Shown here: positions 2,243 through 39,697 of the stretch, in pieces
Numbering within the stretch: the first letter of the stretch is position 1
Layout: each line of letters opens with the position of its first letter
Assembly (NCBI GenBank): GCA_022511025.1
Contig: JAFLSI010000004.1
Span: 4,329-48,247, forward strand
Length of the DNA stretch: 43,919 nucleotides
Direction: 5' to 3'
Origin: Rikenella sp.
GTDB taxonomy: Bacteria; Bacteroidota; Bacteroidia; Bacteroidales; Rikenellaceae
The notes under the pieces: model-generated
Databases searched by the model: none
Seen by the model: only the letters and a program-made list of their open reading frames with translations
Told to the model about the DNA's origin: nothing
Position numbers and translations under genes: made by a program

Positions 2243-2278
2243 TCTGATGTCTCCTGTTTTATTTCCATTTTCCAGAAC

Positions 2279-2380
2279 CTATACCTTCGCGCCGCTCACA
2301 AAAGCAGTCGGATCCTCCGCCGCCCCGACGCTCAGCAGCACGACACCCGATACCAGCAAGTTTTTCGCCCGCTTTTTCAT
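2279..2380 (-). CDS. Very short NVEALA-like secreted peptide or truncated remnant (33 aa)
   Basis: ATG at 2380: MKKRAKNLLVSGVVLLSVGAAEDPTAFVSGAKV*. Its N-terminus is nearly identical to the NVEALA-like protein at 4726..5004 (MKKRTKILLVSGVALLLSAGAV...). Confidence 0.5.
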   Translation of the reverse strand: MKKRAKNLLVSGVVLLSVGAAEDPTAFVSGAKV

Positions 2381-2437
2381 GATAAAAGACTTTCAGGGAA
2401 GAAAAAACTGCCGAGTACGATTATACTATTTGGGGAA

Positions 2438-3499: not shown

Positions 3500-3567
3500 A
3501 ATCAACCGATTAACATATTCCGACACACCATTTCATTTTTCCGCCTTCCAAACAAACAGCTCTTGTC

Positions 3568-4665: not shown

Positions 4666-4680
4666 AATCCAAATTACAAA

Positions 4681-4719
4681 AAAGCGGACAATCATATTAA
4701 TTATATGACTGTCCGCTTT
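4681..4719 (-). terminator. Rho-independent terminator or attenuator between the NVEALA peptide gene and the downstream propeller gene
   Basis: The inverted repeat AAAGCGGACAaTCATAT...ATATGAcTGTCCGCTTT has 10 bp plus 6 bp arms with one mismatch. On the minus strand it runs into TTTTTTGTAA. It lies between the stop at 4726 and the next start at 4665. Confidence 0.75.
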
Positions 4720-4725
4720 CAAACA

Positions 4726-5004
4726 TTAACAATTTTTCATACCATAAATCTTTATTGCTCCCTGCGAACCATCACCATAAACAGTATCGAATGTGCAAAC
4801 ATCCATTTCTTCTCCAGGACAACACGGGATATTAACAGGTTTTTCCCCATTTCCTGCATCCACCGCCAACGCTTCGATATTGGCCAGCGTCAGGTCGGAA
4901 ACAGCCGTCTCTGTCTGAGCCGCTTTCAGGAAATTGATCACAGCTCCGGCGCTCAGCAGCAGGGCTACGCCCGATACCAACAAAATTTTAGTCCGCTTTT
5001 TCAT
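4726..5004 (-). CDS. NVEALA-family secreted peptide
   Basis: MKKRTKILLVSGVALLLSAGAVINFLKAAQTETAVSDLTLANIEALAVDAGNGEKPVNIPCCPGEEMDVCTFDTVYGDGSQGAIKIYGMKNC. It has a signal-like N-terminus, a LTLANIEALA motif (the NVEALA-type box) and a Cys-containing C-terminus. Confidence 0.8.
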   Translation of the reverse strand: MKKRTKILLVSGVALLLSAGAVINFLKAAQTETAVSDLTLANIEALAVDAGNGEKPVNIPCCPGEEMDVCTFDTVYGDGSQGAIKIYGMKNC

Positions 5005-5007
5005 AGT

Positions 5008-5020
5008 AAAAAAGTTTAAG
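5008..5020 (-). promoter_or_regulatory. 13-nt 5'-UTR box shared with the lanthipeptide precursor gene
   Basis: Plus-strand AAAAAAGTTTAAG, 3 nt upstream of the NVEALA gene ATG. Identical to 41045..41057. Confidence 0.5.
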
Positions 5021-5113
5021 ATGTAAAACAAAAATTGTCAAAGACAATTATACAACTTTTCTACTCAAAAACAAAATATTCAGACAGATCTATCTTTCTT
5101 TTATCTCCCCGCA

Positions 5114-6259
5114 TTAGAGTTTCAGGGTGTAGAACACAAGTACGCAGTCGCCGTCGTCGATCCGTTGCCGCACGTCGTCCGGCAAGGCTGCGGCAGCCTC
5201 CGGATGCCTCTCCTGCAACACAGCCTCGGAGTCCGGCGTGATCCAAGTTACGAACGTCGAATCGCTCAGCGCATACCCCCCCATCACGCGAGCCCGAATC
5301 AGATTATGGTCGTTGTCGTCGATATAAACCTTGCCTGTCCGCCGGTCCGCTGCAACGTTGATCCAGTCGTCCTGGGGTTGCGACACGAGTCCGAGCAGAT
5401 ACGGCCCAACTACAAGCGGCATATCGAACTCGTAATAGCCGAAGTCTTCGCGATGCGATTTGGATTTCACCTCCAACCGCTGGTCGTACGGAATGCGGTA
5501 TTTTTCGGGAAAGTTGAACCGGATGCCGCCGACCACCTCGCCCCGACGGTCGTAGAGGTAGATCGAATCGCAGCACTCTTTTCTCCAGACGAACAGCGAG
5601 TCGGAATTTTCCGAAAGAAAAACCCGTGTATCCTGTTCGCCGTACAGTTGCTTTTTCCACTGCAAGTTCCCCCGGTCGTCGGTCCGGTACAGTCCATACC
5701 GATCCTGCGGAATTTCTTTGTAATAAATATCGCCCGACCACAACAACCCATCCTCGCAAGCCACACACGAACTTACCGCCCGCTCCGGCAGAGGCTGCTG
5801 TTCGACGAAATCCCCCGCCAGCGTATAAACCACCAATTTGTCCGCCCTCAGGTCTGCCACAAAAAGCAGGCTGTCGCGAATCGTAAAGCCTTTCATGCTG
5901 AGCAACTCTCCCGGTCCTTTCCCCTCGCGACCGATGTGTCGCCGATAGCGTCCGTCCGTCCCGAAAACCCGAATCCCGTATCGCGGCGCTGATTGACTGG
6001 CGTCCATCACATAGATTTCGTCTCCCCGTATCAAAATTTTTTTTATGCTTACCATAAGACTTTCTTTCGTACTTTCGAGCGGTACGTAGCGAACCTCCGA
6101 AACCAACTGTCCGAATGTCTGCCCCGGTTCTACTTTCCACTCGATCGTCTCGAAAGCCCCCTCCCCCTCTTGCAGAGTGTTATTTTGTTGTTGTGCGCCC
6201 CCGCAGGCGCACAACAACAAGCAACAAACGGGTAACCAAAGTAAATGACGCATCTTCAT
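5114..6259 (-). CDS. 6-bladed beta-propeller lipoprotein
   Basis: Start chosen at MKMRHLLWLPVCCLLLCACGG (lipobox LLCAC). Has the conserved VRYVPLESTKESLM...IRVFGTDGRYRRHIGREGKGPGELLSMKGFTI pattern. Confidence 0.85.
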   Translation of the reverse strand: MKMRHLLWLPVCCLLLCACGGAQQQNNTLQEGEGAFETIEWKVEPGQTFGQLVSEVRYVPLESTKESLMVSIKKILIRGDEIYVMDASQSAPRYGIRVFGTDGRYRRHIGREGKGPGELLSMKGFTIRDSLLFVADLRADKLVVYTLAGDFVEQQPLPERAVSSCVACEDGLLWSGDIYYKEIPQDRYGLYRTDDRGNLQWKKQLYGEQDTRVFLSENSDSLFVWRKECCDSIYLYDRRGEVVGGIRFNFPEKYRIPYDQRLEVKSKSHREDFGYYEFDMPLVVGPYLLGLVSQPQDDWINVAADRRTGKVYIDDNDHNLIRARVMGGYALSDSTFVTWITPDSEAVLQERHPEAAAALPDDVRQRIDDGDCVLVFYTLKL

Positions 6260-6321
6260 CAAAATTTTAATCCAAGTACAATGATACAATGTTTTATGGC
6301 AAAAAACAAATATTCAGCACC

Positions 6322-7242
6322 TCACCGACTCTTCGGCTCCCGGTACGAAACATCGTGCCACAGCCGCCCCCAACGCACTTTCCCGCGACTCCGGTCGTAA
6401 GAATAGGCCACCCGCGTTACCACCCCCAACACGAAAACCTCCGGCACGAATCCCCAGTAGCGCGAGTCCATCGACGCTACGGTGTTGTCGCCCGCCGCAA
6501 AGTAAAAGTTGTCCTGAAACGTGTAGTGCGTAATCACGCTGTCTCCCAACACCGTCCGGCGCAACGAGTCGATCCTCGGCCGGCAGCCGGTCTCGTACTC
6601 CACTGCGGCCGCATACAGCGCGATATTCGAGGTGTCCAACGGAATGCGGTCTCCCTTTCGCGGCACATAGACCGGCCCGAAGTCCCGAATCGTCCACCGG
6701 CCCCAGGCCGAATCCGGCGCGAGGGTGTAACGCGACTCCGGCGGATAGAGCGACAGGTCGTAAAAAGCCAGCTGCCGCTGGTTCTCCGGCACACCGACAC
6801 TCCCGTCCACCCCCCGCACCCGGATAACCCCCCGCTCGGCATAGACCGAATCCCCCGGCAACCCTACGCAGCGCTTCACGAACAACGTGTTGAAATCGAA
6901 CGCGATCCGTCCCCAACCCCGGGCATAGGGGTAGTTGAAGACGATGATGTCTCCGCGCTGCAACGGCCGGTATCCGCGGTATCTCCACCGCCGGATGTCG
7001 GGTTTTTCGGCCGCCATGCTCTCGAAACTGCGGTGGAGCCGGGCGCCGAAGATCGCTTTGTTGACGATCACGCGGTCGCCGGCCCGAAGCGTGGGGTGCA
7101 TCGAATCGGTCGGCACCGAAAACATCTCCCAGCAGAAAAAACGCGACATCACCATGAAAGCCCCCGGCGCCAAGACGATCAGGAAAATCCCGATGCCCCT
7201 CAACAGCTGCTGCCACCAGGGCCGTTTGTGTCGTACGGTCAT
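6322..7242 (-). CDS. lepB: Signal peptidase I (S26 family)
   Basis: Single TM N-terminus, then FSVPTDSMHPTLRAGDRVIVNK (catalytic Ser box), RRYRGYRPLQRGDIIVFNYP, VKRCVGLPGDSV (Lys region) and GDNTVASMDSRYWGFVPE. Start chosen at MTVRHKRPWW because a TATCTTTG -7 box overlaps the longer ORF start. Confidence 0.92.
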   Translation of the reverse strand: MTVRHKRPWWQQLLRGIGIFLIVLAPGAFMVMSRFFCWEMFSVPTDSMHPTLRAGDRVIVNKAIFGARLHRSFESMAAEKPDIRRWRYRGYRPLQRGDIIVFNYPYARGWGRIAFDFNTLFVKRCVGLPGDSVYAERGVIRVRGVDGSVGVPENQRQLAFYDLSLYPPESRYTLAPDSAWGRWTIRDFGPVYVPRKGDRIPLDTSNIALYAAAVEYETGCRPRIDSLRRTVLGDSVITHYTFQDNFYFAAGDNTVASMDSRYWGFVPEVFVLGVVTRVAYSYDRSRGKVRWGRLWHDVSYREPKSR

Positions 7243-7269
7243 ATTTTCAGGGTGTTTACTACTATGCGA

Positions 7270-7277
7270 CAAAGATA
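7270..7277 (-). promoter_or_regulatory. Putative -7 element for lepB
   Basis: TATCTTTG on the minus strand, about 27 nt upstream of the chosen lepB start. No clear -33 element. Confidence 0.4.
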
Positions 7278-7344
7278 CACGCTTTTGCGGGGAGAGTATC
7301 GGAAATTTCCGTTGCCGAGTCTGTTATTTTTCCGGTTTTCCTGT

Positions 7345-7352
7345 TACATTTG
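7345..7352 (+). promoter_or_regulatory. Putative -7 element for the propeller gene at 7376
   Basis: TACATTTG, matching TAnnTTTG, 24 nt upstream of the ATG. No convincing -33 element. Confidence 0.4.
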
Positions 7353-7375
7353 CAAAAATCCGAAAACCTCTCTTC

Positions 7376-8539
7376 ATGAAATTTTTGATCTTGTTTGCTT
7401 TGACGATCGGCCTGATTTCGTGTGCCGAGAGGGTGTCGGACGGGTCTGCAGGAGAGGGCTGGATTACGCTTCGGATCGATCCGGGGGCGATCTCCGAACC
7501 CGAACTGAAGATCGACAGTTTTGTCGATTCCGTCCGGTTCGTCAAATTAGAAACGACCGAACGGTGCATAATCGGACAAATCTCCCGGCTGTTTTTCATA
7601 GACAGCCTTCTTGTTGCTGTAGACAGCAAAGCCGGCACGCTGCTGTTTTTCGACAACCGGGGAAAATACCTCCGTACATTCGACAAACGAGGCAGAGCAC
7701 CCGGCGAATACACCCGAATTACGTGTGCCCTTTACGATTCGATCCGGCAGCAGATCGCGATCTACGACGGTCCGATGCGGAAATTGCTGTTCTACCGTCT
7801 GGATGGCATATTGATCCGGGAAATTCTGGATTTTTGCGAACAGGCGGTCATTCGCGATCTGATCAATCTGCCGGACGGCTCTTTTCTGTGTTATTTGCCC
7901 GATGCGGTCGTGGGACAGAGAGGGTATGACGATCGGTATATCGGACTTTGGAAAGTAGACAGTGCCGGCCGCTTTGTCAAGAACTTTTTGACATACCGCA
8001 CCCTCTACCCCATATCGATACCTCGATACGGGGCCTACCTAACCCATTTAGACGGAGACCGAATCGGATTCACTGACGGCGTAACGGGCGATATCTACCG
8101 TTTTGAACAGGATTCACTGTACAAATACATCGCCTACGACATCGTCGGACCCAAGATTACCGATTTCCCCGACCGACAAGCCGTACCGGGGAGTGAGTTC
8201 GCTTATGTCGGGCCGATGTGGGCCGAACAAAAGGGGGATTACGTCTATTCCTTCTGGAGCGACGACCGGGATCTGTTTCCGGTGCTTTACTCCGGTCGGG
8301 ACGACCGGCTGACGGTGGCAGAACTGCCCGACCGGCGGTATGTCGTCGGACAGCATGTGCCGAATAATCGGAACCGCGTCATGACGCTGGTCGTTACCGG
8401 GGAGGATATTTTGTTGCAGCAGTCGTTCTCTTATCCGGAAGAAATCGAACGGGTCGTTCTGCGGCAGGTGGAGGGCATGACCGAGGAACAGATCGCCGAG
8501 ATGAACCCTTTAGTGGAGATATGGCACATAAAACCCTGA
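7376..8539 (+). CDS. 6-bladed beta-propeller lipoprotein
   Basis: ATG at 7376: MKFLILFALTIGLISCAERVSDG (lipobox LISC). Contains DSFVDSVRFVKLETTERCIIGQISRLFFIDSLLVAVDSKAGTLLFFDNRGKYLRTFDKRGRAPGEY. Confidence 0.87.
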   Translation: MKFLILFALTIGLISCAERVSDGSAGEGWITLRIDPGAISEPELKIDSFVDSVRFVKLETTERCIIGQISRLFFIDSLLVAVDSKAGTLLFFDNRGKYLRTFDKRGRAPGEYTRITCALYDSIRQQIAIYDGPMRKLLFYRLDGILIREILDFCEQAVIRDLINLPDGSFLCYLPDAVVGQRGYDDRYIGLWKVDSAGRFVKNFLTYRTLYPISIPRYGAYLTHLDGDRIGFTDGVTGDIYRFEQDSLYKYIAYDIVGPKITDFPDRQAVPGSEFAYVGPMWAEQKGDYVYSFWSDDRDLFPVLYSGRDDRLTVAELPDRRYVVGQHVPNNRNRVMTLVVTGEDILLQQSFSYPEEIERVVLRQVEGMTEEQIAEMNPLVEIWHIKP

Positions 8540-8698
8540 ACCGAAGGAGGGGGCTATGGGGTGGGACTATAAAACGATCGGTTTAGCCTCCCGTCAATTT
8601 TTACTTGGCACAAAGCAGGATGTTCTTGTTGCCAAATGTCGAATCCTCATTCGGCCTGTGCCATGGGTGAAACAGGCACGTGTTAATTTTTGCTGATC

Positions 8699-8729
8699 CG
8701 GGTGGCTATTTCATCGAAACAGCCACCCG
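8699..8729. terminator. Strong hairpin, possible terminator or 5'-UTR structure
   Basis: CGGGTGGCTaTTTCatcGAAAcAGCCACCCG: 9-bp outer stem plus 4-bp inner stem with one mismatch, immediately upstream of the decayed propeller gene. Confidence 0.5.
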
Positions 8730-8750
8730 CTTGTAAACTACGATCCCATC

Positions 8751-9447
8751 ATGAGAAAACTATTTTCCTTGTTGCTGCCGTGCCTGTTGCTGGCTTGTGG
8801 AGAAAAAAGGGCGAAGGTGTCGGTCGATGAGACACAAACCATAACGATTCCTGTCGATTTCAAAGAGTTGCAGGATGCTAAAATCCAATTGTCGGATTTC
8901 ATCGATTCGGTGGTTTGGATTCCGCTGGAACTGACCCCGGAATGTGTTATCGGTAAGATTTCGCACGTCTATTTTTCAGACAGCTCGATTCTGATTACAG
9001 ACTCAAAGGCTGGGACATTGCTGTTCTTTGACAGGAACGGCAAATATCGCTACAAGATCGACCATCGGGGCCGGGGTACGGGAGAGTACGCCGCAATCCG
9101 TCATGCACTATACGACTCGGCACGACATCGCATTTGGGTTTACGACGACATTTTGAGCAAAGTAATCTGTTACACCTTGGATGGAACCCTGATCCGGGAA
9201 ATTCCAAACTTCAACGAAGGATATGTCATTCGCGATCTGGTCGATCTGCCGGACGGTCGGTTCCTATGTTATACCGACGATGGATTCGTCGGCCAGGGAC
9301 AAGGGATCGACTCTTCTTTGGCTGCTCGATTCCGATACCTCTACGCCTAAAACAAAAGAGAGGATCAGAAATCTGATCGAGGGGATGAGTCTCGACGAAG
9401 TAGAAAATATGAATCCGGTTCTGCAACTTTGGTTTGTCAGATCGTAA
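8751..9447 (+). pseudogene. Decayed tandem paralogue of the 7376..8539 propeller lipoprotein (internal deletion plus frame change)
   Basis: The N-terminal part (MRKLFSLLLPCLLLACGEK...DSKAGTLLFFDRNGKYRYKIDHRGRGTGEY...RDLVDLPDGRFLCYTDDGFVGQ) parallels the intact copy. The C-terminal part continues in another frame (RIRNLIEGMSLDEVENMNPVLQLWFVRS, versus VVLRQVEGMTEEQIAEMNPLVEIWHIKP). Roughly 500 bp of the middle is missing. Confidence 0.82.
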
Positions 9448-9467
9448 TAAAAAACAGTCGAACGTTG

Positions 9468-9835
9468 ATGAAACCGATATGGCTATTTTCGGCGGTGTTT
9501 CTGCCGTTTTTTGCGAGTTCCTGCCGAACCCGCAACATACAGAAAACAATCGAAGCATTTGTCGGTCAGACAATCGTTTTGCCGGACAACATGCAGCCCG
9601 TGTTAATCGGAACAGCATCGACCGAAGTACGATGCTTTTTCGCTACCCTATGTACATCGACCGGGAATGCCGTTTCCCAGCCCTCAACCCAACCCTGCCG
9701 AAAGATCCCCGATTGCACGTTTTCTTACTCGATCACGAGAACCGCGTCGTGCTGGTTGGGAGTCCTATCGGGAACAAGAATCTGTGGGAGCTATACAAAC
9801 AACAAATAGAACACCTGACAGCCGAGACCGAATGA
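9468..9835 (+). pseudogene. Decayed thioredoxin-like (TlpA/AhpC-TSA-type) lipoprotein
   Basis: The start (MKPIWLFSAVFLPFFASSCRTRNIQKTIEAFVGQTIVLPDNMQPVLIG) is in one frame and the end (YPMYIDRECRFPALNPTLPKDPRLHVFLLDHENRVVLVGSPIGNKNLWELYKQQIEHL) in another. The central region where the family would carry its Cys motif is missing. Confidence 0.6.
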
Positions 9836-19031: not shown

Positions 19032-20528
19032 TTATTTTTCAATGGCAACGGCATCGAAGCTGTTCACGATGTTCCGCATGTGCAGAAAGTCGAACAGGGT
19101 GTACCGCTGTATGGTATAGTAATAGTTCCAGTAGTTCTGCAATTCGGTCAGATAGCCCATGTGCGCCGTGTTGCGTTCGCTTTGCGCCGTGTTGAAGTCG
19201 AGCACGCTGATCTGTCCGGCCGCAAACTGCCGCAAAGACAAGGCATACCGCTCGGCAGCCACCGAGTCGGCCTGCGCCGAAATGGAACATTGCAGGTTCT
19301 GGTTGTTGAACTGCATGACTTTCAGGTAAATGTCCTGTTTCCGGTCGATGCGTTCCTTGTCGATCTCGGCCTCGACCACCTCTTGTCGGGAACGGGCCAT
19401 CCGCACCCGTCCCTTGGCCACCCCGCCGTCGAAAATCGGCACGGTGATCCCCATGCGGACCGTCTCCTGATCCAGCGGATTGCGGTACACGCCGCCGATC
19501 GTCTCCGCCACTTGGTTCAATCCGAAACGGGCATAGACATTGGCCTGAGGCCTCCGATTGGCCTTGGCTTGGGCCACGTTCATCTCGGCTTCGAGCTGAC
19601 TGATCCGGTGGCGGTACTCGAACGAGGTATTGGTGAGCGAAAGCCGGTAGGCTTCGTCGACCGAGATTTCGATATCGGCCATATTCTCCGGTATCCGGAG
19701 CACCACCGAGTCCTGCTCGTCATACCGCAAATACGATTTCAGCTTCGCCGCCGCCAGATCGAGCTGCAATTGGTTGGTATTGATGGACATCTCCTCGTTC
19801 AGCAGCCGCAGTTCGAGCTGCATCAGGTCGTTTTTGGAGATGGAGCCGATCCGGAACCGCTCCTGCGAAATTTTGTAGAGGGTGTCGGTATTGGCGTGGT
19901 TCTGACGGGCTATCTCCAGATTCTGCTGGGCGATGAGAAAACTGAAAAAGTACTCCACGGCGGTCGCCGTAATGGACTCCATCGACTCCAAATACTCATA
20001 CTTGGCCTTCTCGTACCGCACCGGTTCGATCCGCTTGTCCCACTTGAGTTGGTTGAATCCGCCGATCGGCTGGTTCAGGATCAGGCTCACCGGCGATGAA
20101 TTCCAGGTTACCTCCCGACTCGGCGAAAACTGGTCGAGCCGGTCCAGTCCGCTGTAGAGCTGCACGTTCCCGCCCGTAGCCGCAATATTCTGCTGGAGAT
20201 ACAGCCCCAGCGAGTTGCGCATGGCGTAGTTGTCCACGTAATTATACCCCCCCGTAACGGCATTCTGCAAAGAGGTGTAGGATTTGTCGAAATTCGGAAT
20301 GGTTCCGCTCAAGGAGAGGGACGGCAGCATCTGCGCCTTGTACGACCGGTACTGCCAGTATTGGCTCAGGTAGCTGTGCTTGGCCATCATCGCGTCGACC
20401 GAATGGCTCTGGGCGCGGGAGATGGCCTCCGGCAGACTCAGCCGAACCACAGCCGCACCGCCGGACAAACTGCACACCGTCAGGATCGCCCCGATGAATC
20501 CTTTTTTTATCTGTCGATGGAGTGTCAT
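19032..20528 (-). CDS. TolC-family outer membrane efflux protein
   Basis: LSLPEAISRAQSHSVDAMMAKHSYLSQYWQYRSYKAQMLPSLSLSGTIPNF and the C-terminal LRQFAAGQISVLDFNTAQSERNTAHMGYLTELQNYWNYYYTIQRYTLFDF are typical TolC repeats. Start chosen at MTLHRQIKKG. Confidence 0.92.
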   Translation of the reverse strand: MTLHRQIKKGFIGAILTVCSLSGGAAVVRLSLPEAISRAQSHSVDAMMAKHSYLSQYWQYRSYKAQMLPSLSLSGTIPNFDKSYTSLQNAVTGGYNYVDNYAMRNSLGLYLQQNIAATGGNVQLYSGLDRLDQFSPSREVTWNSSPVSLILNQPIGGFNQLKWDKRIEPVRYEKAKYEYLESMESITATAVEYFFSFLIAQQNLEIARQNHANTDTLYKISQERFRIGSISKNDLMQLELRLLNEEMSINTNQLQLDLAAAKLKSYLRYDEQDSVVLRIPENMADIEISVDEAYRLSLTNTSFEYRHRISQLEAEMNVAQAKANRRPQANVYARFGLNQVAETIGGVYRNPLDQETVRMGITVPIFDGGVAKGRVRMARSRQEVVEAEIDKERIDRKQDIYLKVMQFNNQNLQCSISAQADSVAAERYALSLRQFAAGQISVLDFNTAQSERNTAHMGYLTELQNYWNYYYTIQRYTLFDFLHMRNIVNSFDAVAIEK

Positions 20529-20699
20529 ACCCGTTTCCGAATCGTTACATTGGCATAAGCAATGCAATATTAGCTTTTTATGACGAATTATGCAAATTTT
20601 GACCCGTGCCGGATCCAGCGGGCACTGGGATCGAACGATTTTTCACTGTACGATCTCCAAAAATCAACGTATTATTTACGATTAACATCGTCGATTTTT

Positions 20700-20707
20700 T
20701 ATATTTG
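20700..20707 (+). promoter_or_regulatory. Putative -7 element upstream of the adenosine-deaminase-like gene
   Basis: TATATTTG, matching TAnnTTTG, in the AT-rich divergent intergenic region. Confidence 0.4.
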
Positions 20708-20819
20708 CAATTTTGGGATTCGGATCGAATCCGAACACAGGGATCGCTGAACTACCCTTTCGGACCGGCCCGCTTCGGCGGCGGAGGCTGTGTCCGGGAG
20801 GCAAAACAGAAGGGGAATC

Positions 20820-23483
20820 ATGACCAATTTGAGGGCCGTCATCGAACTGCTTTTCGCCCGGGCCAACGCCCGGCAGGAACTCGCTTCGCTCTTCGCCTCC
20901 GACCCGCAGCAGGAGCAGCAGGAAGAGGGGAAGAGGGAGCGCTTCGTGGCTGCCTACCAGCATCATTTCCCGCGGCGATACAACGACGACCAGGTCGAAT
21001 CCCTCTACCGGATCGTCCGGAACGAATGGGAATTTCTGCCCGGCGACGAGGAGAGCGGTTCGACTTTCCGAACCGACCGCCGCCATCCGCTCCACACCCT
21101 GCTGCATTTCGGACTCGCCGTTCTGCGGGAGGAGGAGGGCAACCCCGTCTGCGACTACCCTCAACTCCTGCGCTGGCGCGACTTGGCGCTGACGCTCGGC
21201 GAAGAGCTTTTCACCACCTCGTTTCTGGCCTACCGCGACAGGGAGCGTAGCTGCGAACGCGACTACTTCGGCTGGAACGTCATCATCGGCCACAACAACG
21301 ACGAACTCAATGCCCTCTTCCGCGAAGAGAGACTCTCCGAGCTGCACTTCCACCTCAGGGGATCGACCCCGCTCTTCGACCTGAGCTGGATCGGCCTGAT
21401 GAACCATACGCTCGACCGGGACCAAGCGTTCGAGGCGCTGGGCCTGTCGCAGCAGCCCGACATGCTGTTCCGTCCGGAGGAGGTCTACGCCTCGCTGCAC
21501 ACCCTGACGATCTGGGCGGCGGCGATCCGGGCGGCCCTTTTCAAACACCTGATCCGCAAGGAGAACGAGCTGCCCGCATTCCTGTGGCAGCTGACCGGCA
21601 CGGACGACCGGCGGGTGCAGGAGCCGCACCTGACCGAACTTCAGCGCGAAATCGACCGCCTGCAACGGGAGAACGGCCGCCTCTACAGCGGCGAGGTCGT
21701 CGACTATGCCGTCCCGCACTCCCTGCCCGACCGGGAGACCGCCGGCCCGCTCAGCCTGACGATCTACCACGGCGAGCGGCAGCTGCTCTACACCGCTTTC
21801 CGCCACATCTTCCGTTTCCAACCCGGCTACCGGACGATCCGCCAGCTGCTGTATGTCTATCTGATCGCCAAAATCCGGCTGCGGGCCGAGATCGTCCAAC
21901 TCAACGACCACCGCTTCGGATTCAAAAACTTCCAGCGGCACGCCCGGCGTACCTACTTCATCCCGTCCGGCTCGATATACGACCGCCTCGTGAGCAACCT
22001 CGCGATCCACATGACGCTGGCGCCCGGCCATATCGACTACATCGAAGTGCGCATCCCGCCCCAAGAGTCGGAACAGGCCCTGCACGATGTGATCCGGCAG
22101 TTCGACGAGGAGGTCGCCGATCCGTTCGAACCGGAGAAACGACCGGTCGAGGCCGGCCCCGTCTATCCGTACCACTACATTCTCCATTTCATCAAAGAGA
22201 AAAACGAGACGGATGCGGCAGAGAACGGCGCCACCCCATTGTTCTACCCTCCCCGCAGCTACGCCCTGCGGGAGAAGGTCCGGCGCCAGACTTCGGCGAT
22301 CGATGCCTTGCGGAAAAGCAGGCTCTCTTCGCGCCGCCGCATCGTCGGGATCGACGCCGCCAGCTCCGAAAGCGACCAACGGCCCGAAGTATTCGCCACG
22401 GCCTATCGTTTCCTCAAATACCACTCCGCAGCGCCGGCCGGCACCGGTCGACCCGACGACGGAACGCCCGATCTGGGCTTCACCTACCACGTGGGCGAAA
22501 ACTTTTGGGATATGGCGGACGGATTGCGTGCCGTCCACGAAGCGCTGCTCTTCCTCCACCTCGAGTGCGGCGACCGGCTCGGACAGGTCTTGGTGTTGGG
22601 GATCGAACCGGAATACTACTACCGGCGCTGCCACCAACATGTCATCATGAGCGCCCAGAACTTTTTGGACAATGCGGCCTGGATGCTCGCCATGCTGCCC
22701 CGGACGGGCGAAGCGCCCCTGCCGGCCTTGAAAACCCGGCTGGAGGAGTGGTTCCACGACTACTACGACCGGATCTACGGCTGGTCGCACCGGCCGGTTA
22801 CGCCCGAACTCTATTTTCAGGCCTGGCTGCTGCGCGGAGACGACCCGCTTCACTACCGGCCCCGTTCGTCTCCGTCCGAACCCTTCGAACCGATCTTCAC
22901 CGACAACTGGAGCCGGGCGGGGATCAATGAGCCGAAGTCCGAACCGCGCATCGAACGTACCGGCCCGATTGTCGATCTTTACACCGCCTATCACTACGAT
23001 CCCGACGTACGGACCCGGGGGAGGATTCCGGTCGAAGAGCAGGTTCCGGAGGAGTATGTCGAGGCGATCGGACAAATCCAGCGCTTCTTGCGGCGCAAAA
23101 TCGCCGCAAGACAGCTTTTGGTCGAGACCAGTCCCAGTTCCAACTACCTGATCGGAGAGGAGAAACGGTACGACCGGAATCCGGCGATCAAGCTCTACCC
23201 GGTCGGCTCGCCTCTTGCGCCGACCCTCCGGACGATCGACGTCTCCATCGGCACCGACGATCAAGGTATCTTTGCGACCGATCTGGAAAACGAATATTCG
23301 CTGCTGGCTTTATCGTTGGAGAAATCCACCGGTCCCGACCGGAAACCGCTGTACAGCCGGGCCGGCATCTACGACTGGTTGCGCCGCATTGCCCGCATGA
23401 GCCGCGAACACCGGTTTTTCCCCCGGGTGCAGAGAGAGAGGCACCCCGGATCCCCTCCGGCACCGGATGATTCGGCAGAATAA
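20820..23483 (+). CDS. Large adenosine deaminase-like protein, resembling RdrB of the RADAR defense system
   Basis: 887 aa from MTNLRAVIELLFARANARQ. ADA superfamily motifs: LSELHFHLRGS (HxH), GFTYHVGENFWDMADGLRA (HAGE-like), RLGQVLVLGIEPEYYY (position of R-[IL]-G-H), VSIGTDDQGIFATDLENEYSLLAL (TDDP..F.T.L..EY). The size and insertions fit RdrB better than housekeeping Ada. Confidence 0.72.
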   Translation: MTNLRAVIELLFARANARQELASLFASDPQQEQQEEGKRERFVAAYQHHFPRRYNDDQVESLYRIVRNEWEFLPGDEESGSTFRTDRRHPLHTLLHFGLAVLREEEGNPVCDYPQLLRWRDLALTLGEELFTTSFLAYRDRERSCERDYFGWNVIIGHNNDELNALFREERLSELHFHLRGSTPLFDLSWIGLMNHTLDRDQAFEALGLSQQPDMLFRPEEVYASLHTLTIWAAAIRAALFKHLIRKENELPAFLWQLTGTDDRRVQEPHLTELQREIDRLQRENGRLYSGEVVDYAVPHSLPDRETAGPLSLTIYHGERQLLYTAFRHIFRFQPGYRTIRQLLYVYLIAKIRLRAEIVQLNDHRFGFKNFQRHARRTYFIPSGSIYDRLVSNLAIHMTLAPGHIDYIEVRIPPQESEQALHDVIRQFDEEVADPFEPEKRPVEAGPVYPYHYILHFIKEKNETDAAENGATPLFYPPRSYALREKVRRQTSAIDALRKSRLSSRRRIVGIDAASSESDQRPEVFATAYRFLKYHSAAPAGTGRPDDGTPDLGFTYHVGENFWDMADGLRAVHEALLFLHLECGDRLGQVLVLGIEPEYYYRRCHQHVIMSAQNFLDNAAWMLAMLPRTGEAPLPALKTRLEEWFHDYYDRIYGWSHRPVTPELYFQAWLLRGDDPLHYRPRSSPSEPFEPIFTDNWSRAGINEPKSEPRIERTGPIVDLYTAYHYDPDVRTRGRIPVEEQVPEEYVEAIGQIQRFLRRKIAARQLLVETSPSSNYLIGEEKRYDRNPAIKLYPVGSPLAPTLRTIDVSIGTDDQGIFATDLENEYSLLALSLEKSTGPDRKPLYSRAGIYDWLRRIARMSREHRFFPRVQRERHPGSPPAPDDSAE

Positions 23484-23522: not shown

Positions 23523-25013
23523 TCAGAACCTGCGTGCCGTTCCCCGGTCGTTGCGGAAGATGCGCCGGTAGTAGGTTCGTCCCGTGCGTTTGTCGAAAAG
23601 GCAGTAAATCCCGCCGTCCGGAATCCCCGACACGGTATAAACCGGCGAGCCGCCCCCGGCCGATTGGCAAACCGTTGCCTCCGACCGCTGCCACCCTTCG
23701 GGAGTCCAATACGCCACGTATAAACCCCCGGCATCCAACGTGTCGACATCCCGGGGCCGGATCAAAGAGGTTATATCGATCGTTACCGGCCGGCCGGTAT
23801 CCGCCCCGTAGTAGTGCAGATTGCCCCGCGGATCGAGCCGGAACGGACGCCCCGCCTGTCGAACGGACCGATCCGACACATAGACCGGCAAATACAAAAT
23901 TCCCCGTCCGATCTCTTTGAAAAGGGCTTTCCCCTTCGTCGGCGGAGCTTCGGCCGGCACGGCCGGCCGCCAGCGTTCGTTCCCGAACACCGCCAGCGCT
24001 GCCCGTTCCCCCGCCTCAGGGGCCGAGTCGAATGCCACGGTCGGGGTCGATACGGCTACATATTCCGACGTAACATCCCGATAGTACGGGTTGCCGAACC
24101 GCTCGGCCGATTGCGGTTGCGGTTCGAACTCCTGACGGAAAATCTTCGGCGGACCGGCCGCCAACCATTCGCCCGTGTCGAGCATCACCGGATTGCCCTC
24201 CTCGTCGAAATAGACCGCCTCGACATGTCCCCCGTCCGAGGTTCCCCACACCGGGATCACATCTTTCGTGGCGGCAATCCCCATCGCCCGCAAGGCCAGC
24301 ACATAGATGTCGGCCGTCGAATTGCACTCGCCCCGACCGCAAGCGAACGCCTCCTGCGGCGTGAAGGCCGGTTTCAGCATCAAAGCCTCCGCATGGAATC
24401 CGAACCGGCTCTTTACGTCCCGAATAATCAACCGGGCGACGGTGCGTATATCTTTCGGACCCGCCAGCGTGTCGACCATCGGCTCGTAACGGTCCCGAAA
24501 GAAGGCCCGCCAGTCGGTCAGCTCTTCGACGTCGATCCGGTAGGGCAGGACATAATGCAGAAAAAGCGAATCGGAATAGTGAGCCGCCCACGGATACCGC
24601 TCTCGTGCCGCGAATGCCCGGTCGATATTCCGGATCAGGTAGTCTGCGGTCATCGTCTCCGCATCGGCTTCGGTCCGGTACCGGACCGAAAGCCCGGCCG
24701 AGTCGAGTACCTGCCGGTAGTTTTTCCCGGTAATCTCCGGCCGGTAGAGCGAAAAGCCCTCCGCCACTCTCCCCGACGCGTCGAGCAGGTCGAACGTATA
24801 GGTATAGTGTCCCCGGAGGTTCTCCAGCAGAAAAGCGGCCGCAGCGAGCCGTTCCGGTTCGCCGGCATAATGCTCCGCCACCCGGAGCATCTCTCCGTTC
24901 CCGGTCGCCTCGGCCGCCCGACGCGCCCGATGCAATGGCCCGTCGGAACAGCCGACCCAAGCGAAAACCCCGCTCAGCAACCAAACGACAGCGATATACC
25001 TGCGCATAATCAT
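23523..25013 (-). CDS. Transglutaminase-like lipoprotein
   Basis: Start MIMRRYIAVVWLLSGVFAWVGCSDG (lipobox). Transglutaminase core CGRGECNSTADIYVLALRAMGIAATKDVIPVWGTSDGGHVEAVYFDEEGNPVMLDTGEW (Cys, His, Asp). The start overlaps the stop of the upstream HlyD gene (ATGA). Confidence 0.85.
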   Translation of the reverse strand: MIMRRYIAVVWLLSGVFAWVGCSDGPLHRARRAAEATGNGEMLRVAEHYAGEPERLAAAAFLLENLRGHYTYTFDLLDASGRVAEGFSLYRPEITGKNYRQVLDSAGLSVRYRTEADAETMTADYLIRNIDRAFAARERYPWAAHYSDSLFLHYVLPYRIDVEELTDWRAFFRDRYEPMVDTLAGPKDIRTVARLIIRDVKSRFGFHAEALMLKPAFTPQEAFACGRGECNSTADIYVLALRAMGIAATKDVIPVWGTSDGGHVEAVYFDEEGNPVMLDTGEWLAAGPPKIFRQEFEPQPQSAERFGNPYYRDVTSEYVAVSTPTVAFDSAPEAGERAALAVFGNERWRPAVPAEAPPTKGKALFKEIGRGILYLPVYVSDRSVRQAGRPFRLDPRGNLHYYGADTGRPVTIDITSLIRPRDVDTLDAGGLYVAYWTPEGWQRSEATVCQSAGGGSPVYTVSGIPDGGIYCLFDKRTGRTYYRRIFRNDRGTARRF

Positions 25014-26257
25014 TCCCTGATTTTGAGTTTGGATTCGTCGCGGTAGCGGCTCATGTCGCTGACGATGACCGTTTCGCCCGGCAGCAACCCTTCGACCACC
25101 TCGACATATTCGTAACTGCTCTCGCCCAATACCACCGACCGCTTCCGCGCCACCCCGGCCGAGACCACCCACAGTTCGTACCGACCCGGCCCCCGGTAAT
25201 ACGACCGGTTCGCGATCCGCACCGCATCGTCCTTCACCGAGTTGATGATGAAAACATCCGCTTTCAATCCCGACCGCAATTTCGGGTCGTCGTTTTCGTC
25301 GAGCGCCACCGTGAACTTGATCTGTCCGTTCGCCACCGCCGGCACCACATTCCCCACCGACCCGGCGAGCTTCGTGCTCCCGAGCTCGACCACCACGCGG
25401 TTCCCCGGCGCGATCTTCTCGGCATAAGAATCCGCAATCTCTCCCTCGACCTTGAAGTGCGAGAGGTCCGAAACGATCGCCAACTGCGCCCCCTGAGCCA
25501 CCGTCGCCCCGATCTGATCGTTCACCCAAGTCAGCGTCGCCGACCGCGGCGCCCGCACCTGTGCATCGCCCATCGTCTTCCGGGCCAAGGCGAAGTTCTT
25601 TCGGGCGATGTTGTAATCCAAGTCCGTTACCCGCATGTCCGCTTCGGTATTTTTCACCAAATTGGCATACTTGAGCTTGAGCTGCTCGTACTGCATCCGC
25701 TGCACCGCCAGTTCCAGTTCGGCCTGCCGGATCTTGTCGGCCGTGCTGGCCCCGATGCTGTCCAAGTAGCGTTCGTTGCGCAACTGTACCTCGGACCGCT
25801 GCAACCGCATGCTGTCGATCCGGATCTGCATGGCCATCTCCGACAGCTGCGTTTCGGCATTCGACCGCTGTTGCTCGATCTTGCTGCGTTTCATCTCCAA
25901 CTCGTCGCGCTGACGTTCGAAGTCGGTGTTCGTCGCCGCCAAGTCGAGCCGCAGAATGGTATCCCCCGCTTCGAGCCGCTCGCCGGACTTGCGGTAGACT
26001 TCGAGCACTTTCGACGCCACGGGCGAAGCGATAATCTCTTCGAACAGCGGAACCACCTTGCCTGCCGCCGTAACCGACACCTCCAACACCCCCCGGTCGA
26101 CCGTCGAGAGGGTGATCGTCGAGGCATCGACCCCCGATCGCAGCACGCTCACCAACACAATAAACACGACAACGATTCCGGTTCCCACCGAGGCCAGTTT
26201 GACGATCTTTTTCCGCCGCCGCCGGCGAAGAATCTCCTGAGGTATTTGCGTATCCAT
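25010..26257 (-). CDS. HlyD/MacA-type periplasmic adaptor
   Basis: 415 aa, N-terminal TM, VSVTAAGKVVPLFEEIIASPVASKVLEVYRKSGERLEAGDTILRLD and long coiled-coil hairpin. Confidence 0.9.
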   Translation of the reverse strand: MDTQIPQEILRRRRRKKIVKLASVGTGIVVVFIVLVSVLRSGVDASTITLSTVDRGVLEVSVTAAGKVVPLFEEIIASPVASKVLEVYRKSGERLEAGDTILRLDLAATNTDFERQRDELEMKRSKIEQQRSNAETQLSEMAMQIRIDSMRLQRSEVQLRNERYLDSIGASTADKIRQAELELAVQRMQYEQLKLKYANLVKNTEADMRVTDLDYNIARKNFALARKTMGDAQVRAPRSATLTWVNDQIGATVAQGAQLAIVSDLSHFKVEGEIADSYAEKIAPGNRVVVELGSTKLAGSVGNVVPAVANGQIKFTVALDENDDPKLRSGLKADVFIINSVKDDAVRIANRSYYRGPGRYELWVVSAGVARKRSVVLGESSYEYVEVVEGLLPGETVIVSDMSRYRDESKLKIRE

Positions 26258-34429: not shown

Positions 34430-36637
34430 TTAATTACCCAATTCAAGTTGATTTCTTACCAAATTATAATAATGACCTTGAAGTCGAGTCAGTTCTGTAT
34501 GAGTCCCTTGTTCTACAATACGACCTTGATCCAAGACAACAATCTTATCCGCATTCTTAACAGTGCTCAATCGATGTGCAACGACAATAACCGTCTTATC
34601 CTTAAACAGTTGAGTCAGATTTTCCATAATCGTCCGCTCATTATTGGCATCCAAGGCATTTGTGGCTTCATCAAAGAGTAAATAGTCAGCATCTTTATAC
34701 GCAGCTCGGGCGATTAACATACGTTGTCTTTGTCCACTGCTCAGACCGTGTCCATCCGCTCCTATCTGAGTATCATATCCTAAAGGAAGCGCATTAATAA
34801 ATGAATCAATATTACCTACTTGTGCTGCAGCTCGGACACGATCCATATTAGGAACCTCATCTGAAATCGCAATATTGTTAGCAATTGTATCTGAAAAGAT
34901 ATAACCATCTTGCATGACAACGCCACAGTGTTTTCTCCATAAACTGTCGTTATATTGCGTCAAGGGAATATTCCCCACCATTATACTCCCTTCTACAGGT
35001 TGGTAAAATCCGAGAATTAATTTTAACAAAGTTGTTTTGCCACTACCACTCGTCCCTACAATCGCAGTTGTTTGATGCGCTGGAATAGTTAGATTTATTT
35101 GGTTTAAAACTTTTTCGGATTGTGGACCTTCGTATTGAAATACGACATTTTTAAAGCAAATATCTTGAGCGGATGGCAGGTAGTTGATTTTGTTTGTTTG
35201 TTTACTCTCTTCATCCGAATTGTTTTGGACTTCATCGAGTCGTTCCATACTTAGTTTGGCATCTTGGGCCGTTTGGATGAACCCGATAAATTGGACAATA
35301 GGGGCATTCAATTGCCCAATAATATATTGTAATGCCATCATCATTCCGAGGGTCATTTGTCCTTCAATGACGACTTTGGCTGCTAAAAACGAGATTAAGA
35401 TATTCTTAGCTTGATTAATAAATAACCCTCCTACTTGTTGAACTTGTTCTAAAGCCAATCCTTTTATTTCAATTCTGTATATTTGAGCTTGAATGCGCTC
35501 CCATTTCCACCGTTTTTGTTTCTCACAAGTATTGAGTTTAATATCTTGCATCCCGGAGATCATCTGAACCAAACTGGATTGATTTGTAGCTGCCTGTTGA
35601 AAGCGTTTATAGTCTAATTCCCGCCGTCGCTTAAGAAAGATTAGAACCCATCCAACATATAAGGAGCTACCCAGCAGAAATATCCCAAGGATTAGCAAGT
35701 TATACCAAGCCATAACAATGCTATATGTTACGAAAGTGATCAGGGCCATTGTAATGCTGATGCATGTGCCAGTCAGAAAGTTCTGAATTCGTTTTGAGTC
35801 ATCAATCCGTTGAAGCAGATCCCCAATTCGTTTAGAGTCAAAAAAAGCGATCGGAAGCTTCATCAATTTGCTTAAAAAGCCCGAAACTAATGTAATCCCG
35901 ATGCGCGTAGTAATATGCAGCATTAACCAGCTGCGGATGAGTTCATTTACAGTCTGGCCTATAGTCAACATTACTTGGGCCGTTAAGATCAGAATGATAA
36001 AATGCAGATCATCATTACCGATCCCTATATCTACCATTGATTGTGTCAAAAAAGGTAGAATCAAGCTAATAATACTGCCTGTTAGTAATCCCAGTAGAAT
36101 TTGAAAAATGTATTTCCGATAAGGTTTAAGATGCCGGAGAATATTAATCAATGAAAGTCCATTAGTGGTAATACTGGTTTCGTCATCTTGAAAAAAACTC
36201 GGAGTTGGCACTAAAAGTAAAGCTAAACCTACAGGGATATTCTCTACAGTAGAGGTTGACCAGCATTTTAGAAATTCATCTTTGTTATATTGCAACAATC
36301 CACTATCAGGATCAGCAACATAAATTATAATACTTCCATTTTTGCGTCGACGAATCTGATACACCACCACAAAATGATGCTGATTCCAATGAACGATACA
36401 AGGTAGAGTAACAGAAGAATATAATTGCTCCCAAGTAATACGCACCCCTTGACTGCGGAATCCAATAGTTTCTGCAGCCTCACTTATCCCAAGCATCGAA
36501 ACTCCTTCTTTCGTGATGTAGCATTTGTTACGTAATGTTTCCAAAGAATAGTGTCGACCATAAAATCGCGCAATCATACGTAGACAGGCCGGACCGCAGT
36601 CCATAACATCTAACTGGGGATAGAATGGAAACTTCAT
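34430..36637 (-). CDS. Peptidase C39-containing bacteriocin ABC transporter (leader-cleaving exporter)
   Basis: N-terminal C39: FPFYPQLDVMDCGPACLRMIARFYG...HWNQHHFVVVYQI...VADPDSG. ABC: GTSGSGKTTLLKLILGF, LSSGQRQRMLIARA, YLLFDEATNALD. Confidence 0.95.
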   Translation of the reverse strand: MKFPFYPQLDVMDCGPACLRMIARFYGRHYSLETLRNKCYITKEGVSMLGISEAAETIGFRSQGVRITWEQLYSSVTLPCIVHWNQHHFVVVYQIRRRKNGSIIIYVADPDSGLLQYNKDEFLKCWSTSTVENIPVGLALLLVPTPSFFQDDETSITTNGLSLINILRHLKPYRKYIFQILLGLLTGSIISLILPFLTQSMVDIGIGNDDLHFIILILTAQVMLTIGQTVNELIRSWLMLHITTRIGITLVSGFLSKLMKLPIAFFDSKRIGDLLQRIDDSKRIQNFLTGTCISITMALITFVTYSIVMAWYNLLILGIFLLGSSLYVGWVLIFLKRRRELDYKRFQQAATNQSSLVQMISGMQDIKLNTCEKQKRWKWERIQAQIYRIEIKGLALEQVQQVGGLFINQAKNILISFLAAKVVIEGQMTLGMMMALQYIIGQLNAPIVQFIGFIQTAQDAKLSMERLDEVQNNSDEESKQTNKINYLPSAQDICFKNVVFQYEGPQSEKVLNQINLTIPAHQTTAIVGTSGSGKTTLLKLILGFYQPVEGSIMVGNIPLTQYNDSLWRKHCGVVMQDGYIFSDTIANNIAISDEVPNMDRVRAAAQVGNIDSFINALPLGYDTQIGADGHGLSSGQRQRMLIARAAYKDADYLLFDEATNALDANNERTIMENLTQLFKDKTVIVVAHRLSTVKNADKIVVLDQGRIVEQGTHTELTRLQGHYYNLVRNQLELGN

Positions 36638-36667
36638 GCGTTACTGATAAGTGCTTGTGATCAAATA

Positions 36668-37546
36668 TTACTCTATTATCGAAAGATTTCGCGCCTTCAC
36701 AGACTTATAATACTTATCTAAGCAATGATACACGACTAATTCACAAAGGCGGTTTTTAGATCTAAACCATCGGTTCATAGTCATATGCAGGTAACTACTC
36801 ATTAATTGATCTTTTGGAATTTCCCATTCTCGTTTGGTATTATTCCAAGATGCTAAAAGAGTATATAATTCTTGCTTCCGAGCAGCATAAAGGGAGTCCC
36901 TGGCCAGAGAGGCACTTTGATGAGTTATGATATTCTCTATCTGATGACGCCATTGTCGGTATTTATCATTTAACTGGCCTGAATACGGTTGTTTCTCACA
37001 CTGAAATTCAGAACGAAAAGTTGTACTCGATCGTTCTAACAATCGGCATTTGTCATCCAATGTATATCTGCCGGCCTCTAATAAATCATCAATCAAACGA
37101 AAAGAGGATAACCAACGAACTTGCTCAGCATCAGACGTCTGGTGTATGGCATCGAGCAAGGTGAGTAAATACTTGCTATCAATACAAAAAACAGATTCCG
37201 ATAATGCCATATCTTGCTGACCATAACGTTCGATTTCTCGATGATATGTGTCGCACATAATATTCCATAATAATCCATTCTCCAGACATATGGACAAAGT
37301 CTGGTGGATTTGTTCAAATATAGTACTGTAATTATGAGGTTCTATAATGTGAAGCCGAAGACGAATGTGAAAGTGAGGATCGCTATAACGAATGAAAAAA
37401 TACTCCTGTATTTGACTGCTCTCAACAAGTTGAAATAGCAACGGCTGTAAATACTTGAGCAGAATTGTATCCGCACTCTTATATCCAGTATACAATTTAA
37501 AGTAAAGCCATTCGCTGCCTGGGATGTAGTGGCGTATTATTTGCAT
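36668..37546 (-). CDS. Thiopeptide-type bacteriocin biosynthesis protein / lantibiotic dehydratase C-terminal (elimination) domain
   Basis: 292 aa: GSEWLYFKLYTGYKSADTILLKYLQPLLFQL...QEYFFIRYSDPHFHIRLRLHI matches the SpaB_C / TIGR03891-type pattern. Confidence 0.88.
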   Translation of the reverse strand: MQIIRHYIPGSEWLYFKLYTGYKSADTILLKYLQPLLFQLVESSQIQEYFFIRYSDPHFHIRLRLHIIEPHNYSTIFEQIHQTLSICLENGLLWNIMCDTYHREIERYGQQDMALSESVFCIDSKYLLTLLDAIHQTSDAEQVRWLSSFRLIDDLLEAGRYTLDDKCRLLERSSTTFRSEFQCEKQPYSGQLNDKYRQWRHQIENIITHQSASLARDSLYAARKQELYTLLASWNNTKREWEIPKDQLMSSYLHMTMNRWFRSKNRLCELVVYHCLDKYYKSVKARNLSIIE

Positions 37547-37555
37547 GTTAAAACG

Positions 37556-39697
37556 TTAATTCCGATGTAAAGCAAAAATAAATTCATTGGTGAAAGGAGT
37601 AGTCGGTGATTTAATTGGATCAAACAGAAACTCCATGACAGAAAAATAAGGTCGTAACCCTATTTCTCTAAACATAGCCCGAATACTGATAGGATTGTGC
37701 AGATCAACCAATAATTCATGATCCGAGTTAGCAATGATAAATTGTTGGGGTAATTTTTGTCTTTGTGATAGTTCTAACATAGCACACATTAAGGATTGAT
37801 CATCTAATTCCGCATTAGGCAAATCACTGGTTTTTAGTCGCCATTGTTGTCGACTAAGAACATGTCCTCTATAGGTCACACGGGGTAGATAGTCGACTAT
37901 ATTTGCCCAATTACCCCATTGAAAATCTAAATTTGTCCGTAACCCTTGTGATTGTAAATCACAAAGGAATCTGTATATAGGTAAACTACGCCATACATAG
38001 TTGTGGGCAGAAGTTAATCTTGGAATGATTTCTTTGTTCAATTTGCATGAGCGTAAATGAACTCGATCCTGTCGTATGCTAATCATTAAATCCGATATAG
38101 GAATTTGTTGATCCGCTGCTAAATGGGAATGCCCCAGATATGGAATTTCATATTCACGCAGTATAGGCCGAAACAAGATATTGCCTATCCGAGCTGCAGG
38201 TAAGTGGATAACTTCTGCAACAATTGCATCGGGATATAATTCAGACTCTTTCTGTGTGATAGCCTTTACTAATTGATAGACAGAAGGGTCCAAATGTGAG
38301 AATCTGCTAATAAGATTGGCGGCAGAAGTTCCACCCACAGAATGAATATAAAATTGACAGGGAGAATCGGATAACATTCGACACATGACTTGCAATGTTT
38401 CCGGAAATGTACCTTGTGTATCGGCATTCGCAGGCAAATCTCGCTCATCTAATATGATCTCTGTTTCTCCCTTTTGTCTTGCCGCTATATATTTGTTATA
38501 CAAAGCATCATTTAAGATTACCGGTGTGAATTGTGGATCTTGAGTCGGCAAACGAAGATCATCGATAAAACGGTTAATATCTGCTTGATTTTCATTTATT
38601 GGATACCCTAAGCCTAAATCATTATCTAAAACTTGAGCCAAAGGCATTTCTTGTTGTTCATAACGTTCAAGAAAAGCAGATTTAAATAACTCCAATGGGG
38701 TATTGGAAAATCGATAAGATGTATATTTCGTTAAAAACGAAATTATATCTAACAATTCTTTTTGAATTTCATAGTTAAGGGTTATTTGGGCTGGTTTATA
38801 TAAGTCGGTTTGGATTAGATATTTGGGATTATATTCGCAATCCAATTTTTCGACTTCTTGTGTCAGGGCATTGTAGAGTGTAGGTATCTCAGCCGGAATT
38901 GAATTATCAATCGAATGAAGTAAATCTTGAATGCGGCTTAAGGAATACTGATACGACTCCGTATTCTGTAAAGAACGAAGTCTGTGTAACAAATATTCTA
39001 AGGGATCCTCTCCCGTAACTGCGATTTCCAATTCATTTTTCAACAACTGAGATTCGATAATTTCAGCAATAAAACTTTTGGCATCTTCCAGTGTTATTTG
39101 CTCTGTGATAATATGTTGAGCCAATTCTTCAATAGTGGCTCCAGAACGCGCCGCATGTAAAACGGTTGTTAAATACTCTGAGTGCTCAACACTACAAGTC
39201 CGATGAATTCTTTGGGTTTGATGATAAATGTATTCAACATAGCGTAAAGTACCCCCGAAATTATAAATACTGTCATTAGGAAAATATCGTAGTTGATTCG
39301 CTATGACAGGCTGTTTTGTCAAACGATCAATCAGATCGGATAACAGGCTCATATCTAATCGGGAACAAGGCCTGTAATTTGCTATTTCAGGTAGTATGAT
39401 TTTTGTGTCTGCAGCAAAGTACCCAACTGAACACCCTGCAAACAAACCAAATGGTGTACATCTGGTTTGTGAGCGAGAGATGTATTTATAAAGTGTAATA
39501 TCTATCCTTAATTGTTCCTTATTGAACTCGTGAGCTTTGATTTTTTCTCTATAAAAATCAGGAGAAGACAGGAACAAGGCTCCGTCAAAAAAATCTCGTT
39601 GGCATTCGTCGGTTATTACTCCTACCCGATCGGTCCAAGGGAGGCTAGGCGTCCTGACGATAAACGAAGGAAATAAGGAAAAAGGGCAAGAATTCAT
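37556..39697 (-). CDS. Lantibiotic dehydratase (LanB N-terminal, glutamylation domain)
   Basis: 713 aa: FSLFPSFIVRTPSLPW...YKYISRSQTRCTPFGLFAGCSVG...YRPCSRLDMSLLSDLIDRL...LRYFPNDSIYNFGGTLRYVEY is typical LanB-N. The start overlaps the upstream gene by 4 nt. Confidence 0.93.
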   Translation of the reverse strand: MNSCPFSLFPSFIVRTPSLPWTDRVGVITDECQRDFFDGALFLSSPDFYREKIKAHEFNKEQLRIDITLYKYISRSQTRCTPFGLFAGCSVGYFAADTKIILPEIANYRPCSRLDMSLLSDLIDRLTKQPVIANQLRYFPNDSIYNFGGTLRYVEYIYHQTQRIHRTCSVEHSEYLTTVLHAARSGATIEELAQHIITEQITLEDAKSFIAEIIESQLLKNELEIAVTGEDPLEYLLHRLRSLQNTESYQYSLSRIQDLLHSIDNSIPAEIPTLYNALTQEVEKLDCEYNPKYLIQTDLYKPAQITLNYEIQKELLDIISFLTKYTSYRFSNTPLELFKSAFLERYEQQEMPLAQVLDNDLGLGYPINENQADINRFIDDLRLPTQDPQFTPVILNDALYNKYIAARQKGETEIILDERDLPANADTQGTFPETLQVMCRMLSDSPCQFYIHSVGGTSAANLISRFSHLDPSVYQLVKAITQKESELYPDAIVAEVIHLPAARIGNILFRPILREYEIPYLGHSHLAADQQIPISDLMISIRQDRVHLRSCKLNKEIIPRLTSAHNYVWRSLPIYRFLCDLQSQGLRTNLDFQWGNWANIVDYLPRVTYRGHVLSRQQWRLKTSDLPNAELDDQSLMCAMLELSQRQKLPQQFIIANSDHELLVDLHNPISIRAMFREIGLRPYFSVMEFLFDPIKSPTTPFTNEFIFALHRN

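What the first reader, a model, noticed from the sequence alone, without database searches (positions are those of the whole stretch)
20820..23483. Apparently orphan RdrB-like adenosine deaminase without a RdrA ATPase
An ~887-aa protein has ADA-superfamily motifs (LHFHLRGS, YHVGEN, TDDQGIF..LENEY) embedded in a large protein, as in RdrB of RADAR. Its neighbours are an efflux operon and a transglutaminase operon; no RdrA-type ATPase or RdrC/RdrD candidate is in the window. It may be a standalone defense effector or nucleotide-metabolism enzyme of a distinct branch.
Basis: partly seen in the sequence, partly recalled or inferred. Interest (0 to 1): 0.72.

Follow-up and report, generated by a model that had tools for sequence, protein, structure and literature searches.

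The report
Orphan RdrB with altered active site
A Bacteroidales genome carries, on its own, the deaminase half of a known anti-phage system (RADAR); its partner gene is missing and one of the four active-site histidines is a glutamine, so it is most likely a leftover or repurposed relative rather than a working stand-alone defence gene.

Summary
Window 20820-23483 (+) encodes an intact 887-aa protein homologous to RdrB, the RADAR deaminase, along its length. It is divergent: 105 bits against NCBI's RdrB cut-off of 800, and at most 37% identical to any full-length relative found. No RdrA was found in the window or in its 91%-complete genome.

The fourth histidine of RdrB's tetrad (E. coli H530, in GDRLGH) is Gln589 here; all 88 other RdrB-like sequences aligned keep His. 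The residue after the catalytic Glu is Asn instead of Asp, also unique. The nearest relative has RdrA and keeps His. Of 268 genomes in the family, only one other has a trace: a same-genus species with a truncated C-terminal fragment (57% identical) at another locus.

Best reading: a RADAR component left behind after RdrA was lost, impaired as a deaminase, now a relict or repurposed. It does not belong to a separate RdrA-free branch. Such a branch does exist: in passing I found ten RdrB-like proteins, mostly in Bacteroidales, that lack RdrA and sit beside SNF2-helicase, HIRAN-like, radical-SAM and M42-peptidase genes. They keep the histidine and are not the window's closest kin.

The parts
20820..23483 (+). 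RdrB-like ADA-superfamily protein, 887 aa, intact, monocistronic
   Evidence: full-length alignment to 71 and 90 sequences
21345..21353 (+). H-x-H zinc motif (His176, His178; E. coli RdrB H152/H154), kept
   Evidence: alignment
22488..22502 (+). His557-Val-Gly-Glu560 (E. coli RdrB H498/E501) kept, followed by Asn561 where relatives have Asp
22584..22586 (+). codon CAG = Gln589 in GDRLGQ, replacing the fourth tetrad histidine (E. coli RdrB H530)
   Evidence: residue roles from PMC9994260
23256..23261 (+). Asp813-Asp814 of TDDQG, kept
20699..20708 (+). possible Bacteroidota-type -7 promoter element TATATTTGCA about 110 bases before the ATG; no exact -33/-7 pair found, so unproven
19032..20567 (-). 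neighbour: outer-membrane efflux protein of an RND operon, orthologous in sister species without the deaminase gene beside it
23523..25529 (-). neighbour: transglutaminase-like protein, convergent; its 5' end in this ORF call overlaps the next gene and is not certain

Best explanation
It is an orphaned RADAR subunit. An RdrB of a Bacteroidales RADAR lineage lost its RdrA partner, and on this branch one of the four active-site histidines became glutamine. The ADA barrel and the lengths of the three RdrB-specific insertion regions are kept, so the protein probably still folds and may still assemble. It most likely no longer carries out RADAR-style ATP-to-ITP conversion, because the histidine tetrad is incomplete and both RdrA and RdrB activity are needed for RADAR defence. 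Shown: intact gene, RdrB homology, no RdrA found, His to Gln, nearest relative has RdrA and His, a truncated copy in a sister species. Inferred: the loss of RdrA, the loss of activity, and that it is now a relict (most likely) rather than a gene with a new role.
For: RdrB profile and solved-structure matches. RdrA absent from window and genome by profile, while the same profile finds RdrA in G231, G334, G254 and G255. 56 of 80 related GTDB-contig loci have a >700-aa P-loop RdrA-like ORF directly upstream, and about ten more have a split or partial one. His at this column in all 88 other sequences; Asp at the next-to-Glu column in all 88. The window protein departs from near-invariant columns more than any other (9 of 90; family median 1) and has a long end branch, 1.52 against a median of 0.36. 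A sister species has only a C-terminal fragment at a different locus, and 266 other genomes of the family have nothing. Tetrad and need for both subunits: PMC9994260.
Against: The ORF is intact over 887 codons with host-like GC3 (0.81) along its whole length, and its differences from the sister fragment are concentrated in third codon positions (69 against 37 and 29 of 131; Fisher p 1e-7). So the protein was under selection for much of its history, perhaps still is. Zinc ligands HxH, H557, the catalytic Glu and both Asp are kept.
Confidence: 0.5

Rival explanations
1. A repurposed pseudoenzyme: the RdrB scaffold without RdrA now works by binding nucleotides, or as a structural or sensor protein, and the changed active site (Gln589, Asn561) is an adaptation.
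For: Intact ORF, composition fitted to the host, third-position excess against the sister fragment; conserved core and lengths of the insertion regions; changes are concentrated next to the catalytic residues.
Against: Found intact in one of 268 genomes of the family; the sister copy is truncated; no conserved gene partner. The codon-position signal may predate the His to Gln change.
Confidence: 0.25
2. An active stand-alone deaminase (defence effector or nucleotide enzyme) in which Gln589 replaces His.
For: All other catalytic residues kept; purified E. coli RdrB converts ATP to ITP without RdrA in vitro (PMC9994260).
Against: His is without exception in 88 relatives, including the RdrA-free clade; in vivo, both RdrA and RdrB activity are required. 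The effect of this particular substitution in RdrB was not found in the papers read.
Confidence: 0.15
3. Assembly effects: RdrA lies in the missing 9% of this 207-contig assembly, or the His to Gln codon is an assembly error.
For: The genome is a 207-contig assembly, 91% complete.
Against: The gene sits inside a 48-kb contig with 20 kb or more on either side and no RdrA; RdrA is directly adjacent in relatives; Asn561 and other near-invariant positions changed too.
Confidence: 0.1

Closest known systems
RdrB of RADAR (E. coli, PDB 8fnw/8hr7; PMC9994260)
   Same: Full-length architecture, HxH, HVGE, TDD motifs, lengths of the insertion regions
   Different: No RdrA gene; H530 equivalent is Gln; Asp after catalytic Glu is Asn; far below the NCBIfam RdrB cut-off (which Bacteroidota RADAR RdrBs also miss)
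L022, RdrB-like protein of an uncultured Bacteroidia MAG
   Same: Highest identity (37% over 723 columns) and sister on the tree (support 90)
   Different: Has an RdrA-like ATPase 45 bases upstream (NCBIfam RdrA 1.8e-23) and keeps GDRLGH
RdrA-free RdrB-like clade (L081 Phocaeicola vulgatus and nine others)
   Same: RdrB-like, no RdrA nearby
   Different: Keeps His; conserved neighbours (SNF2 helicase, HIRAN-like, rSAM, M42); a separate clade
Cad1/CAAD (CARF-fused ADA; PMC12669630)
   Same: ADA-superfamily ATP deaminase of defence; weak profile match (5e-6)
   Different: No CARF domain found here; much larger; clearly nearer RdrB
Housekeeping adenosine deaminase (PF00962)
   Same: Same superfamily, match around TDD (0.0071, below cut-off)
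   Different: RdrB-type insertions; far better match to RdrB

Membership tests
RdrB (deaminase subunit) | Full-length sequence homology to RdrB | tested here: met
   significant though below the curated equivalog cut-off (105 of 800 bits), which RADAR-linked RdrBs of Bacteroidales also miss
RdrB (deaminase subunit) | Histidine tetrad (E. coli H152, H154, H498, H530) and catalytic Glu E501 | tested here: not met
   three His and Glu present; H530 equivalent is Gln589 (roles from PMC9994260)
RdrB (deaminase subunit) | Three insertions into the ADA core that build the dodecamer | tested here: inconclusive
RADAR system | RdrA AAA+ ATPase encoded with RdrB | tested here: not met
   no match in window or genome
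RADAR system | ATP/dATP to ITP/dITP conversion and phage defence | not testable with these tools
   needs enzyme assay and phage challenge
RdrA-free RdrB-like clade with SNF2/HIRAN neighbours | SNF2 helicase and HIRAN-like gene beside the deaminase | tested here: not met
   no match to either in the window
Housekeeping adenosine deaminase | Reaches the curated score for A_deaminase or aden_deam | tested here: not met
   15.9 of 27 bits; 20.9 of 216.55 bits

The most novel reading that the evidence does not exclude
A domesticated RADAR deaminase: an RdrB scaffold freed from RdrA and with a rebuilt active site that acts as a pseudoenzyme, for example by binding ATP or sensing nucleotides, in a gut Bacteroidales lineage.
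Probability: 0.2. Interest if true: 0.6.

Novelty: new variant of a known kind. Interest (0 to 1): 0.35.

Why it matters
If it is a relict, it shows how RADAR decays: RdrA goes first, then the deaminase active site. It also warns that RdrB-only hits in defence surveys need an active-site check. If it is repurposed, it would be the first case that I know of in which the RdrB scaffold works without its catalytic tetrad.

Tried and rejected
Patterns from the single protein found no relative in genome contigs or viral contigs; the alignment-based scan did. No phage record matches. A stand-alone branch was tested by tree: the RdrA-free clade is separate. N811G was first taken as a sign of damage and then dropped, because several other RdrB-like sequences (L014, L015, L101, L102, L143) also have Gly there. 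Row L103 picked the wrong ORF (a 972-aa ORF, not the deaminase) and was left out of the counts. The careful tree did not finish; FastTree was used, and the window's branch is long, so its exact place is unsure. Two literature searches for the effect of the homologous His mutation in ADA found nothing usable.

Full report
Observation. The ORF at 20820-23483 (+) is intact and encodes 887 aa. It matches RdrB profiles (PADLOC 1.4e-21; NCBIfam NF041744 3.3e-30, 105 bits against a cut-off of 800) and the solved E. coli RdrB (8fnw, 1.3e-20) far better than ordinary adenosine deaminase (PF00962 0.0071, below cut-off). An antisense ORF of 860 aa is a product of the high GC3 and has no support.

Surroundings. 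The gene lies between an RND efflux operon transcribed away from it and a convergent transglutaminase-like gene followed by HlyD, OEP and MacB-like genes. Four sister species carry the efflux operon's outer-membrane gene; in G048, G027 and G040 the deaminase is absent next to it, while in G068 the contig ends there. The gene is thus a species-specific insert. It has no same-strand neighbour, and the window has no RdrA, SNF2 or HIRAN-like homologue.

Is RdrA elsewhere? A profile of 37 RdrA proteins from relatives finds none in the window's genome or in G056, but finds RdrA in G231, G334, G254 and G255. G334's own RdrA is in the profile, and G231's is nearly identical to it, so G254 (9.5e-126) and G255 (3.7e-17) are the independent controls. 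G405 also gave no RdrA; its RdrB copy is N-terminally truncated. The window's genome is 91% complete, so absence is likely but not proven; adjacency in relatives makes an unlinked RdrA unlikely.

Active site. In E. coli RdrB the zinc site is described as a histidine tetrad H152, H154, H498, H530 with catalytic Glu E501 (PMC9994260). The window has His176, His178, His557, Glu560, and Gln589 in place of H530; the block GDRLG[H/Q] aligns without gaps. In 88 other RdrB-like sequences (some near-identical) the column is His without exception; Asn561 after Glu560 is also unique, Asp in all 88. Of 90 columns that are 95% conserved in the other sequences, the window departs at 9, the most of all; the median is 1. 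The other long-branch sequence, L017, departs at 8, but not at a catalytic residue.

Relatives and tree. A scan of genome contigs gave 455 related stretches, of which the best 80 were kept. In 56 of these a P-loop ORF of more than 700 aa lies directly upstream, and about ten more have a split or partial RdrA. On a FastTree tree the window pairs with L022 (support 90), which has RdrA and His; its end branch is 1.52 against a median of 0.36, so the position is not firm. Of 268 genomes of the family only the window's and G056, of the same genus, have a match; G056 has a fragment of about 150 residues, truncated upstream where it meets a phosphodiester-glycosidase-like gene (assignment from its sequence, not searched), at another locus.

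Selection. Against the G056 fragment the differences by codon position are 37, 29 and 69 of 131 (Fisher p 1e-7): protein-level constraint acted for a good part of the divergence. GC3 is host-like along the whole gene. Neither dates the constraint relative to the His to Gln change.

Mechanism. Shown: homology, missing partner, incomplete tetrad, truncated sister copy. Known from the literature: RADAR needs active RdrA and RdrB in vivo, while RdrB alone deaminates ATP in vitro (PMC9994260). Inferred: the window protein is an RdrB left without RdrA, with little or no deaminase activity, either decaying slowly (preferred) or retained for a binding or structural role. An active stand-alone enzyme is not excluded, since no assay of the Gln variant of RdrB was found.

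Verdict. A true RdrA-free RdrB-like clade exists, and is recorded under noticed in passing; it may deserve a study of its own.

Noticed in passing
L059, L061, L069, L073, L075, L081 (Phocaeicola vulgatus ATCC 8482, 1821-9703), L088, L089, L091, L099: A clade of ten RdrB-like deaminases (local support 100) without RdrA, catalytic His kept. A HIRAN-like small gene directly follows the deaminase, and an SNF2 helicase, a radical-SAM/SPASM maturase-like gene and an M42 peptidase-like gene are nearby in all loci long enough to show them. A possible RADAR variant in which a SNF2 helicase stands in for RdrA.
   Followed up: partly
L087 (137-3742 and 4360-9370), L082: Prevotella-type loci with the radical-SAM/SNF2 genes near an RdrB-like deaminase; L087 also has RdrA, so the cassette and RADAR can co-occur.
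   Followed up: no
L019, L024, L025, L035, L041, L044: RdrA is split into two adjacent ORFs (about 320 and 480-700 aa) upstream of RdrB in Flavobacteria-type and Fusobacteriaceae loci.
   Followed up: no
L104 3113-9439 (Aureibacter tunicatorum plasmid pAT1): Unannotated RADAR: RdrA-like, RdrB-like, then a SLATT protein.
   Followed up: no
L018 3971-4438 (G056) and L100 6932-7642 (viral contig): C-terminal fragments of RdrB-like genes, one in a sister species and one joined to phage-tail-like genes at a contig end.
   Followed up: partly
L014 8-1987 (G405): RdrB-like gene whose N-terminal part is replaced by unrelated sequence, no RdrA found in that genome: another possible relict, His kept.
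   Followed up: no
window 34430-39697: Class I lanthipeptide-type genes: lantibiotic dehydratase N- and C-parts and a C39-peptidase ABC transporter.
   Followed up: no
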